Assembly (NCBI GenBank): GCA_002687935.1
Contig: NZBN01000010.1
Coordinates: 1 to 55,615, forward strand
DNA length: 55,615 nt
Origin: Methanobacteriota archaeon
Lineage (GTDB): Archaea > Undinarchaeota > Undinarchaeia > Undinarchaeales > Undinarchaeaceae
Direction: 5' to 3'
Positions 16,141 to 55,615 of the stretch are shown here, one piece after another (the stretch's first letter is position 1; every line of letters begins with the position of its first letter). Below the pieces are notes generated by a model. It did no database searches and was not told where the DNA came from. It worked only from the letters and a program-made list of their open reading frames with translations. A program made the translations under genes and the position numbers.

Positions 16141-16231
16141 ATAGCGATTTATAGAGGCTTGCACATACAAATTATAGTCCCATTTTTCTGCCAGGAATAT
16201 TATTATATATCACTTCATCCTATAGAATAAT

Positions 16232-16867
16232 ATGGCTAAAGAAAAAACTACCACTACAGAGAAAGACGAAGTTCTGACTATAGAAGGTAAGCGCAGAGAT
16301 ATTCTTGGAAAAAACAACATAGGCACTCTAATTATTACAGGTGACGCAGGAGAGTTTGTAGGCAGTGGAAACAAAGGCACAATCACAGTTATAGGCAAGG
16401 CAGGAAATGGTGTGGGCGATACAAACAAAGGCACAATCACAATTATAGGCAAGGCAGGAAATGGTGTGGGCGCTACAAACAAAGGCACAATCACAATTAT
16501 AGGCAAGGCAGGAAATGGTGTGGGCGCTACAAACAAAGGCACAATCACAGTTACAGGTGACGCAGGAAAGGATGTGGGCGATGGAAACGAAGGCACAATC
16601 ACAATTAACGGCAACGCAGGAAAGGATGTAGGCAATGGAAACGAAGGCACTCTAATTATTACAGGTGACGCAGGAGCTCATGCGGGCGAGAGCAACGAAG
16701 GCACAATCACAGTTAACGGCAACGCAGGAAAACGTGTTGGACATGATAACTACGGCACAATCACAGTTACAGGCACAATAGAAGAACTCCACAAATACGC
16801 TTCCGGCACAATCATAGCAGGAGATGTAACAGAAGACCACGGCATTCCTTGGACTAAAATAACTTAG
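16232..16867 (+). CDS. Stand-alone GXGXG-type beta-helix repeat protein, copy 1 (8 x 18-aa repeats)
   Basis: Repeats of GTITxxGxAGxxVGxxNK; GxxGxxxG pattern as in GltS/FwdC GXGXG domains; cap GTIIAGDVTEDHGIPWTKIT. Confidence 0.8.
   Translation: MAKEKTTTTEKDEVLTIEGKRRDILGKNNIGTLIITGDAGEFVGSGNKGTITVIGKAGNGVGDTNKGTITIIGKAGNGVGATNKGTITIIGKAGNGVGATNKGTITVTGDAGKDVGDGNEGTITINGNAGKDVGNGNEGTLIITGDAGAHAGESNEGTITVNGNAGKRVGHDNYGTITVTGTIEELHKYASGTIIAGDVTEDHGIPWTKIT
16320..16750 (+). repeat. 54-bp tandem repeat array (copy 1)
   Basis: Near-exact 54-nt units, e.g. ggcacaatcacaattataggcaaggcaggaaatggtgtgggcgctacaaacaaa repeated consecutively. Confidence 0.9.
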
Positions 16868-16909
16868 CCGAGAAATATTATTATATAACAATTCATCTTA
16901 TAGAATAAT

Positions 16910-17707
16910 ATGGCTGAAGAAAAAAATACCACTACCAAGAAAAAAGAAGTTCTTATTATTGAAGGTAAGGGCAGACGCAATCTTGGAAAAAACAACATAG
17001 GCACTCTAATTATTACAGGTGACGCAGGATATGTTGTGGGCGATACAAACAAAGGCACAATCACAATTATAGGCAACGCAGGAAATGGTGTGGGCGATAC
17101 AAACAAAGGCACAATCACAGTTACAGGCAACGTAGACAAAACTGTGGGCTTTAAAAACAAAGGCATAATCACAGTTACAGGCAACGCAGGAGATTATGTG
17201 GGCATTAGAAACAAAGGCACAATCACAGTTAACGGCAACGCAGGAGATAAGCCTGGGGAAGATAATAAAAGCACAATCATAGTCAAAGGCAACGCAGGAA
17301 ATGGTGTGGGCTTTAAAAACAAAGGCACAATCATAGTCTTTGGCAACACAGGAGATAAGGTGGGCGAGAGCAACGAAGGCACAATCACAATTATAGGCAA
17401 GGCAGGAGATAGTGTGGGCTTTAAAAACAAAGGCATAATCACAGTTAACGGCAAGGCAGGAGAGTTTGTAGGCAATGGAAACAAAGGCACAATCACAGTT
17501 ACAGGTGACGCAGGAGATTATGTGGGCGATGGAAACAAAGGCACAATCACAGTTAACGGCAAGGCAGGAGATTATGTGGGCTGGGGAAACGAAGGCACAA
17601 TCACAGTTACAGGCACAATAAAATCACTTGATAGAAAGGCTTCCGGCACAATCATAGCAGGAGATGTAACGGAAGACCACGGCATTCCTTGGACTAAAAT
17701 AACTTAG
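16910..17707 (+). CDS. Stand-alone GXGXG-type beta-helix repeat protein, copy 2 (11 x 18-aa repeats)
   Basis: Same N- and C-terminal caps as copy 1; 265 aa versus 211 aa = exactly three extra repeats. Confidence 0.8.
   Translation: MAEEKNTTTKKKEVLIIEGKGRRNLGKNNIGTLIITGDAGYVVGDTNKGTITIIGNAGNGVGDTNKGTITVTGNVDKTVGFKNKGIITVTGNAGDYVGIRNKGTITVNGNAGDKPGEDNKSTIIVKGNAGNGVGFKNKGTIIVFGNTGDKVGESNEGTITIIGKAGDSVGFKNKGIITVNGKAGEFVGNGNKGTITVTGDAGDYVGDGNKGTITVNGKAGDYVGWGNEGTITVTGTIKSLDRKASGTIIAGDVTEDHGIPWTKIT
16998..17592 (+). repeat. 54-bp tandem repeat array (copy 2)
   Basis: 11 units encoding 18-aa repeats. Confidence 0.9.
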
Positions 17708-17743
17708 CCGAGAATTATTCACCAGATCTGAAAGGAGTCCAAT

Positions 17744-53065: not shown

Positions 53066-53857
53066 ATGGCAGATCAGATAAAGACTTTGGTGACAGGCGG
53101 ACAGGCAAGTGCCGGCCCACCTCTGGGTCCAGCTCTTGGGCCACTTGGAGTTCCAGTTAATCAGGTTGTTGAAAAAATAAATGAGGCTACAAAGGATTTC
53201 GCCGGTATGCGAGTTCCTGTTGTTGTAAAGGTTGATCCAAAAACTCGAGCTTTCGAAATTGAAGTTGGCAGCCCTCCTGTTTCTGCTCTTATTAAAAAAG
53301 AAATGAATCTCGAGAAGGGCTCCAGTTCTCCAACTACTGAGAAAGTGGCAGATATGGTTATTGAGCAGGCAATTAAGATTGCAATAATGAAGGAAGACTC
53401 TCTTATGGCAGGTTCAAGAAAGGCTGGAGTAAAAACTGTTATAGGAACTTGCCAGGCGATGGGAATATTAGTCCAGGGAAAACCAGCTCCTGAAACTCTT
53501 AAGGATATTGATGAAGGAATGTATGATGAAAAGATTGAATCTGGGAAGACAGAGCTTTCCGAAGCAGAATTACAGAAGATTGAGGAAGATAAGATAAGAC
53601 TTGCAGAAGAAGCTGAACAAATGCGCGAAGAGAACGAAGCAAAAGCTAAGGAGCTAATTGGCGCACTCAAGGGTAAACCTGATGATGAAGTAAGGGACGC
53701 ACTCAAGGAAGCAGGAATTCCAAGCAACATCATACTAGGGCTCTTGCCAAAGGCAGAGGAACCAGCCGAAGGTGAAGAGGGCGCTGAGGGCGCAGAAGGC
53801 GACGAAGGCGCATCTAAGGAAGAAGGCGACGAAGAAAAGAAAGATGGAGATAAGTAA
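53066..53857 (+). CDS. rpl11: 50S ribosomal protein L11 with acidic C-terminal extension
   Basis: TGGQASAGPPLGPALGPLGVPVNQVV. Confidence 0.96.
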   Translation: MADQIKTLVTGGQASAGPPLGPALGPLGVPVNQVVEKINEATKDFAGMRVPVVVKVDPKTRAFEIEVGSPPVSALIKKEMNLEKGSSSPTTEKVADMVIEQAIKIAIMKEDSLMAGSRKAGVKTVIGTCQAMGILVQGKPAPETLKDIDEGMYDEKIESGKTELSEAELQKIEEDKIRLAEEAEQMREENEAKAKELIGALKGKPDDEVRDALKEAGIPSNIILGLLPKAEEPAEGEEGAEGAEGDEGASKEEGDEEKKDGDK

Positions 53858-54604: not shown

Positions 54605-55615
54605 TGAGGGAAGGTGATATTCCTCAACAGAAGGTAGACCTAGTCAATGAGCTTGTCAATCTGATTAATGAAAATTCAGTTGTCGCTGTTGTAGATATTT
54701 TAAATTTGCCTTCAAAACAGTTTTTGCAGATGAAGCACGCACTTCGCGGAAAAGCTGTAGTGAGGATGGCAAGGAAGAGTGCTCTTCTACGTGCTCTTGA
54801 ACAGACAGATAGTAAGGGTCTTGTTGAGTATTTGAAAGGAATGCCAGCTATTCTAGTCTCTTCAGAAAATCCCTTCATGCTTTCAAAAATTCTAAAAAGT
54901 AGTAAGGCAACCGCCCCTGCAAAAGAGGGCACAACATTGAACAAGGATATAGTAATTCCGGCTGGCGAAACTTCATTTGCACCTGGTCCTGTCGTCGGCG
55001 AAATGCAAATGATGGGTGTCAAAGCAGCAATAGAAGGTGGAAAAGTTGTTGTAAAGGAAGATTCAGTTCTCGCAAAAGAAGGGGAAGTTGTTGATAAGAA
55101 AAAAGCAGACCTCATGGCGAAACTAGGTCTTGAGCCAATAGAGATTGGTCTTGATATGGTGGCCGCTTACGAAAATGGATTAATTTTCACTTCAGATGTT
55201 CTTAACATTGATACAGAGGAAACTCTTTCTCAGCTTGCTATCGCATCTGCAAATGCATTTGGTCTTGCGTACAGTATCAAGTATCCAACAAGTGATAACA
55301 TTGAAATGTTCATAAAAGAGGCATTCGTGCAGGCAAAGGGTCTTGCTATGGAGGTAGACTATATGTGCAGTGCGACCGCCGAGGACCTGTTGAAGAAGGG
55401 TGTCCGGGAAGCATCTGCTCTTGAGAGCAAGCTTCCAGCGGCTCCAGCTGAAGAAAAACCTAAAGAAGAAGCTCCTCCTGTAGAAAAACCAGAAGAAGCT
55501 CCAGAAGAAAAGGCTGAAGAAACTAAAGAAGAAGCTCCTCCTGTAGAAAAACCAGAAGAAGCTCCAGAAGAAAAGGCTGAAGAAACTAAAGAAGAAGCTC
55601 CTCCTGTAGAAAAAC
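54604..55615 (+). CDS. rplP0: 50S ribosomal protein L10 (P0), truncated at window end
   Basis: VNLINENSVVAVVDILNLPSKQFLQMKHALRGKAVVRMARKSALLRAL; TAATG overlap with rpl1; open to window edge. Confidence 0.95.
   Translation, partial: MREGDIPQQKVDLVNELVNLINENSVVAVVDILNLPSKQFLQMKHALRGKAVVRMARKSALLRALEQTDSKGLVEYLKGMPAILVSSENPFMLSKILKSSKATAPAKEGTTLNKDIVIPAGETSFAPGPVVGEMQMMGVKAAIEGGKVVVKEDSVLAKEGEVVDKKKADLMAKLGLEPIEIGLDMVAAYENGLIFTSDVLNIDTEETLSQLAIASANAFGLAYSIKYPTSDNIEMFIKEAFVQAKGLAMEVDYMCSATAEDLLKKGVREASALESKLPAAPAEEKPKEEAPPVEKPEEAPEEKAEETKEEAPPVEKPEEAPEEKAEETKEEAPPVEK
55462..55615 (+). repeat. Exact 63-bp tandem repeat encoding KEEAPPVEKPEEAPEEKAEET in the L10 tail
   Basis: Units start at 55462, 55525, 55588; array runs off the window. 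Confidence 0.95.

What the first reader, a model, noticed from the sequence alone, without database searches (positions are those of the whole stretch)
16190..17716. Tandem pair of stand-alone GXGXG beta-helix proteins differing by exactly three 54-bp repeats
Seen: two adjacent ORFs share N-cap, C-cap (GTIIAGDVTEDHGIPWTKIT) and a duplicated promoter segment (attattatata...atagaataatATGGCT). They consist otherwise only of 18-aa repeats GTITxxGxAGxxVGxxNK: 8 in copy 1, 11 in copy 2. Known: GxxGxxxG repeats form the right-handed beta-helix of the glutamate synthase and FwdC GXGXG domains, where they are parts of enzymes. Inference: a free-standing structural or scaffold/adhesin-like repeat protein that changes length by repeat-unit recombination. 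No signal peptide is evident, so an intracellular filament or scaffold is possible.
Basis: partly seen in the sequence, partly recalled or inferred. Interest (0 to 1): 0.75.

Follow-up and report, generated by a model that had tools for sequence, protein, structure and literature searches.

The report
Free-standing variable beta-helix repeat proteins
A marine archaeon carries two neighbouring genes for rod-like beta-helix proteins built almost only of an 18-residue repeat; the genes come and go between close relatives, and the outward-facing residues vary faster than silent sites, which suggests a diversifying binding rod rather than an enzyme part.

Summary
Proteins A (16232-16867, 211 aa, 8 repeats) and B (16910-17707, 265 aa, 11 repeats) share both caps and a promoter block. 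AlphaFold2 predicts a beta-helix for both (pLDDT 86). Sequence relatives are FwdC/FhcC and, weakly, glutamate synthase GXGXG domains, but both score far below the FwdC cut-off and no such enzyme subunits were found in the genome. The host is a marine Undinarchaeota MAG (statistics match GCA_002687935.1). Close homologues occur only in the three held genomes of its genus.

(2) The repeats are mosaic; B is not A plus three units. (3) Outward positions change amino acid while silent sites stay fixed by position: omega 17.6 outward, 0.66 inward; whole-repeat omega 2.4 against a simulated omega=1 maximum of 1.6.

Best reading: a cytosolic beta-helix rod with a diversified binding surface, not an enzyme subunit. 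Its ligand is unknown. Filament, orphan-subunit and non-functional readings remain possible.

The parts
16232..16867 (+). ORF A, 211 aa, 8 full 18-aa coils (21.0 kDa, pI 5.6)
   Evidence: AF2 beta-helix pLDDT 86.3, pTM 0.84
16232..16321 (+). N-cap of A (30 aa; first 11 residues disordered)
16322..16753 (+). 8 x 54-bp repeats of A; units 3 and 4 identical
16754..16864 (+). C-cap of A (37 aa, ends GTIIAGDVTEDHGIPWTKIT)
16910..17707 (+). ORF B, 265 aa, 11 full 18-aa coils (26.9 kDa, pI 9.3)
   Evidence: AF2 beta-helix pLDDT 86.2, pTM 0.86
16910..16999 (+). N-cap of B
17000..17593 (+). 11 x 54-bp repeats of B
17594..17704 (+). C-cap of B
16170..16231 (+). Promoter block of A: AATTATAGTCCCATTTTTCTGCCAGGAATATTATTATATATC...; TATA-like run about 25-30 bases before ATG, so a leaderless mRNA is likely (inference)
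16867..16909 (+). Promoter block of B; touches the stop codon of A
16190..16201 (+). Left short direct repeat GCCAGGAATATT, left edge of the inserted segment
   Evidence: comparison with empty site in G001 C32
16867..16879 (+). Middle short direct repeat GCCGAGAAATATT between A and B
17707..17719 (+). Right short direct repeat GCCGAGAATTATT, right edge of the inserted segment

Best explanation
A and B are cytosolic, capped, GXGXG-type beta-helix rods that are not subunits of formylmethanofuran dehydrogenase or glutamate synthase. Each 18-residue unit is one coil; inward I/V/A/N and turn glycines hold the fold, and outward positions 6, 8, 11, 12, 15, 16 and 18 form a variable surface. The family varies its surface by amino-acid change at those positions, by gain and loss of coils through unequal recombination between 54-bp units, and by insertion or loss of whole genes through recombination at short shared sequences around the promoter and ends. 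I infer that the rods bind something whose identity changes (a partner, viral or competitor macromolecule), or that they display divergent binding sites along a fixed scaffold. Shown by computation: fold class (predicted), family relation, no FwdC or glutamate synthase in the assembly, presence/absence at three sites, excess of non-synonymous change at outward positions. Inferred: cytosolic location, binding function, mechanism of movement.
For: Fold: (Foldseek probability 1.00 to FhcC 6s6y_C, 0.99 to FwdC 5t61_O, 0.89 to GltS 1ea0; E-values weak). No partners: TIGR03122 finds only these genes in the genus; the PF01645 hit in G000 lies in a 351-aa ORF between genes that look like isopentenyl phosphate kinase and a UbiA-type prenyltransferase, so I read it as isopentenyl diphosphate isomerase, not glutamate synthase. 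Presence/absence: EMC3-like and YchF-type genes are adjacent (87 bp) in G001, while the pair lies between them in G000; the G001 C33 gene is inserted exactly at ATGGCTAAAG of a 111-aa gene that is uninterrupted in G002, and both are absent in G000; the G001 C20 gene begins at TTTTTTCT|GCCGA, and G002 matches up to that point and then diverges without the gene. Selection: silent bases are position-specific and against genome usage (D is GAC at position 8 but GAT at 11, 12 and 15; I3 ATC 16/16 against 12% usage; N17 AAC 18/19); NG86 dN/dS 4.2 at variable and 0.36 at scaffold positions; structure-defined outward omega 17.6 (2dlnL 23.7), inward 0.66, whole repeat 2.43 with a simulated null maximum of 1.63 in 40; the outward excess recurs in A alone, B alone and G001 C20.
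Against: No binding partner, no genomic linkage to a known system, no PADLOC hit. Omega estimates use few short, recombining repeats; one paralogue (G001 C33) shows no excess (dN/dS 0.31 at variable positions), and whole-repeat omega in A, B or C20 taken singly is not significantly above 1. Silent sites could be held by something else, for example the long antisense open frames. Low silent divergence may partly reflect recent spread of a unit.
Confidence: 0.5

Rival explanations
1. Bactofilin-like intracellular filament or scaffold: rods stack and the coil number sets length, abundant because of a strong promoter.
For: Predicted rod with short disordered N-tail, no signal peptide; the promoter block has a near copy about 270 bases before the 16S gene in G001, which may mean strong expression.
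Against: No bactofilin family match at E up to 10 for A or B, no bactofilin chain in the profile search of the PDB or among the Foldseek rows shown; conserved N- and C-caps; surface residues hypervariable.
Confidence: 0.2
2. Orphan enzyme-type subunit: a GXGXG beta-helix still serving as structural subunit of an unrecognised oxidoreductase or amidotransferase.
For: Nearest sequence relatives are FwdC/FhcC.
Against: Below the FwdC cut-off; no FwdC in the phylum's six held genomes, and no glutamate synthase recognised in G000; gene-number variation and hypervariable surface do not suit an obligate interface.
Confidence: 0.1
3. Accessory genes of little function: repeat cassettes that expand and move by recombination under relaxed constraint.
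For: Different sites in each genome, empty in a relative; mosaic repeats.
Against: Scaffold positions and caps are conserved (inward omega 0.37-0.66), frames are intact in all complete copies, nearly every copy has its own promoter block.
Confidence: 0.12
4. Exported adhesin or surface protein.
For: A variable surface on a fixed scaffold is common in adhesins (general knowledge).
Against: No signal peptide or transmembrane segment evident in the sequence; N-terminus is MAKEKTTTT / MAEEKNTTT.
Confidence: 0.06
5. Ice-binding protein with a TxT face (T2 and T4 of GTIT).
For: Most units in A and B read TIT; some beta-helical antifreeze proteins appear weakly in Foldseek.
Against: The face is not conserved in G001 C33 (KIL, EIL, EIT); sampling sites of the phylum were at 18 C and above (PMC7414124).
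Confidence: 0.01
6. Assembly artefact of one gene.
For: Short-read MAG; near-identical units A2-A4.
Against: A and B differ throughout; syntenic flanks; homologues in two other MAGs.
Confidence: 0.01

Closest known systems
FwdC / FhcC, formylmethanofuran dehydrogenase subunit C (TIGR03122; PDB 9sfi, 6s6y, 8rja, 5t61)
   Same: GXGXG beta-helix, GTIxVxGxAGxxVG coil, separate polypeptide
   Different: Here the array is uniform 18-aa units, has different N- and C-caps, scores below the family cut-off, and no FwdC was found in the genome
Archaeal glutamate synthase subunit 3 / GXGXG domain of GltS (PF01493)
   Same: Same repeat superfamily; B passes the Pfam gathering score
   Different: No glutamate synthase recognised in the genome; lacks the C-terminal segment seen in the archaeal subunit-3-like proteins (L079, L089)
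274-aa free-standing GXGXG array in another archaeal MAG (G316:C174, L073)
   Same: Nearly all repeat, no enzyme domain (Pfam E 1.8e-19), scaffold codons fixed and exposed codons variable
   Different: 19-aa unit with GxxM motif, different C-terminus, whole-array omega 0.69, acidic (net charge -16)
Bactofilins (PF04519)
   Same: Free-standing cytosolic beta-helix rod with disordered tail (works-like comparison only, from general knowledge)
   Different: No sequence match; conserved caps; variable surface
SegB of Metallosphaera (PMC12284271)
   Same: Archaeal protein with a repeat-built predicted beta-helix and length variation
   Different: Repeat domain inserted in a DNA-binding RHH protein; different beta-helix type

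Membership tests
GXGXG superfamily (PF01493-type beta-helix) | Profile match above the curated cut-off | tested here: met
   B: 37.3 bits against 32.5. A not listed by Pfam; G001 C20 25.0 bits, below. Assignment of A rests on homology to B
GXGXG superfamily (PF01493-type beta-helix) | Beta-helix fold | tested here: met
   AF2 predictions of A and B, regular strand per coil; prediction only, handedness not measured
FwdC (TIGR03122) | Score above equivalog cut-off 130.65 | tested here: not met
   56.1 and 78.9 bits
FwdC (TIGR03122) | Partner subunits FwdA/B/D in the genome or operon | not tested
   No other FwdC-like gene was found; FwdA/B/D were not searched individually; none seen among the neighbouring ORFs
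Glutamate synthase GXGXG domain | Glutamate synthase FMN domain in same protein or genome | tested here: not met
   The only G000 PF01645 hit is read as isopentenyl diphosphate isomerase from its context
Bactofilin (PF04519) | Profile match | tested here: not met
   Absent at E up to 10
Bactofilin (PF04519) | Self-assembly into filaments | not testable with these tools
   Needs purified protein and electron microscopy
Ice-binding beta-helix | Conserved TxT ladder on one face | tested here: not met
   Lost in G001 C33

The most novel reading that the evidence does not exclude
A genus-specific recognition system in DPANN archaea: mobile one-gene cassettes that encode beta-helix rods whose outward residues are under diversifying selection, comparable in logic to variable LRR or ankyrin binding arrays but on a GXGXG scaffold related to enzyme subunits.
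Probability: 0.25. Interest if true: 0.75.

Novelty: new variant of a known kind. Interest (0 to 1): 0.5.

Why it matters
GXGXG beta-helices are known as structural parts of two enzymes. A family of partnerless, capped, length-variable rods with fast-changing surface residues in small, probably partner-dependent archaea would be a new use of that fold and a natural template for designed binding rods. The presence/absence sites also show how single genes shuffle in these reduced genomes without a recognised transposase.

Tried and rejected
Phage origin: no relative in viral contigs, only two weak 25% matches in phage records, no plasmid match, no confident viral fold match. Defence system: no PADLOC match. 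Nucleic-acid mimicry by charge: net charge is -4 (A), +6 (B), -6 and +7 in relatives, so there is no consistent acidic surface. Genome-wide insertion motif: TTCTGCCGAGAAATA with up to 2 mismatches is near background in G000 (3 against 2 for the reversed control) and enriched in G002 (12 against 2), so it is not claimed as a recombinase site. Strong rRNA promoter: the block upstream of 16S in G001 could be a relic of an insertion, because in G002 it precedes an unrelated ORF next to the same neighbour. DGR-like adenine mutagenesis: third-position A at unit position 16 stays fixed in 15 of 19 units, which argues against it.

Full report
WHAT IS THERE. Two adjacent same-strand ORFs, A (16232-16867) and B (16910-17707), consist of a 30-aa N-cap, 8 or 11 units of 18 aa with consensus G-T-I-T-V-x-G-x-A-G-x-x-V-G-x-x-N-K, and a 37-aa C-cap. 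The arrays are the strongest tandem repeats in the window. Each ORF has its own promoter block ending ...TATAGAATAATATGGCT. The window is contig C10 of a 666,542-bp assembly in 11 contigs; its contig C2 is 173,317 bp. These numbers match GCA_002687935.1, a marine Undinarchaeales MAG (PMC7414124), and named homologous contigs from the same lineage confirm the group.

FOLD AND FAMILY. AlphaFold2 without an alignment predicts a regular strand-bearing coil per unit for both proteins, mean pLDDT 86 and pTM 0.84-0.86, with only the first 11 residues disordered. Sequence searches point to GXGXG proteins: PF01493 for B above its gathering score, the FwdC model TIGR03122 for A and B but far below its cut-off, and FwdC/FhcC chains for the family profile in the PDB. 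Foldseek gives its highest probabilities to FhcC, FwdC and GltS, but E-values are weak and TM-scores are near 0.4, so handedness and detailed fold remain predictions.

NO ENZYME CONTEXT FOUND. TIGR03122 finds nothing else in the genome or in five other Undinarchaeota genomes. The one glutamate-synthase-domain hit in G000 lies in a 351-aa ORF between an apparent isopentenyl phosphate kinase and a UbiA-type prenyltransferase, so it is read as isopentenyl diphosphate isomerase (annotation from my own knowledge of these families). FwdA, B and D were not searched one by one. Neighbours are an EMC3-like membrane protein (my annotation; no Pfam match above cut-off), a YchF/YGR210-type GTPase and, further on, apparent Kae1 and Bud32 genes, none obviously related.

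DISTRIBUTION. Close homologues occur only in the three held genomes of the genus. G001 (SRR5007147.bin71) has genes of 211 aa (C20) and 191 aa (C33) and a 140-aa small paralogue (C23); G002 (UBA55) has one long gene with assembly gaps (C13) and the small paralogue (C2). Three other Undinarchaeota lack the family. A profile search of 394 genomes, reaching across the domain, returns, among the matches inspected, FwdC-like and glutamate-synthase-subunit-3-like proteins and one other free-standing array, L073 in G316.

CASSETTE-LIKE BEHAVIOUR. (a) The G000 pair lies between the EMC3-like and YchF-type genes; in G001 these genes are adjacent, and the junction reads TATAGTCCCGCCTTTCTACTGTGAAATATTCATCAG against TATAGTCCCATTTTTCTGCCAGGAATATT...[pair]...GCCGAGAATTATTCACCAG in G000. 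The G000 insert is flanked and divided by three copies of a 12-13-base sequence (GCCAGGAATATT, GCCGAGAAATATT, GCCGAGAATTATT). G002 carries one such gene beside the EMC3-like gene, plus an opposed 264-aa ORF. (b) The G001 C33 gene is inserted at the start codon ATGGCTAAAG of a 111-aa gene, so that this gene is now preceded by the cassette promoter; G002 shows the uninterrupted order, and G000 lacks both genes. (c) The G001 C20 gene begins at TTTTTTCT|GCCGA; G002 is 100% identical over the preceding 78-base aligned block and then continues without the gene, although G002 has an assembly gap just upstream. Insertion and deletion cannot be told apart, and no recombinase was identified. The promoter block also precedes unrelated ORFs in G002. 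Recombination at short homologies is therefore the simplest mechanism, and it is inferred.

EVOLUTION OF THE REPEATS. Silent bases are fixed by position in the unit and against genomic usage: Gly1 GGC 18/18 and Gly10 GGA 18/18, although GGC is 15% of glycine codons in eight neighbouring ORFs; Ile3 ATC 16/16 (12%); Asn17 AAC 18/19 (35%); Asp is GAC at position 8 (5/5) but GAT at positions 11, 12 and 15. Position 12 shows 10 amino acids with third base T in 17 of 19 units. With variable positions chosen from the data, NG86 dN/dS is 4.2 against 0.36 for the scaffold. To reduce circularity I used positions defined from C20 or C33 alone, where the codon model again preferred high omega, and positions assigned as outward from the predicted strand pattern: omega 17.6 for A+B (2dlnL 23.7), 6.2 for A, 6.0 for B, at the upper bound for C20; inward 0.37-0.66. 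For whole units of A+B together omega is 2.43; 40 simulations under omega 1 gave at most 1.63. Single-gene whole-unit values (1.3-1.4) are not significant, C33 shows no excess, and recombination between repeats violates the tree model. I regard diversifying selection as likely, not proven.

HOW IT PROBABLY WORKS. The conserved scaffold with capped ends and a changing exposed surface argues for a discrete rod that binds something. Coil number and gene number change through unequal and short-homology recombination. Location is taken to be the cytosol because there is no signal peptide. The ligand is unknown. Polymerisation is possible but unsupported, and an enzyme-subunit role is disfavoured.

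The length difference is three units, but the repeats are mosaic. FwdC and archaeal GltS subunit 3 are also separate chains, so what is new lies in the missing partners, the presence/absence pattern and the surface variation.

Noticed in passing
L071:725-1489 and L036:1111-1905 (G002): Two unrelated accessory ORFs (254 aa, no Pfam match; 264 aa, weak HTH) sit at or beside the same intergenic places as beta-helix insertions in relatives.
   Followed up: partly
L106:1-380 minus strand (G002 C15): An unrelated ORF (MLKTEVVISVSEFADIL...) directly follows the same promoter block, next to the AhpC-like gene; in G001 the same block lies about 270 bases before 16S rRNA.
   Followed up: partly
L020:742-1164 and L018:1444-1875: Small conserved paralogue (140-143 aa, a few coils plus a basic C-terminal tail), syntenic in G001 and G002, 88% identical; not found in the G000 assembly. 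G002's long gene has a similar C-terminal tail that A and B lack.
   Followed up: partly
L073:1498-2322 (G316:C174): A second, separate 274-aa free-standing GXGXG array with 19-aa units in another archaeal lineage, with fixed scaffold codons and variable exposed codons.
   Followed up: partly
window 55453-55615: 63-bp repeat (98% matches) at the contig end encoding an E/P/A-rich stretch; a similar EAPAE-rich ORF lies at L034:2319-2615 in G001.
   Followed up: no
window 53767-53812: 18-bp tandem repeat CGAAGGCGCAGAAGGCGA, 2.6 copies.
   Followed up: no
window 16210-17496, minus strand: Long antisense open frames (146, 106, 100 aa; P/F/I-rich) run through both repeat arrays; probably a by-product of codon choice, but they could constrain silent sites.
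   Followed up: no
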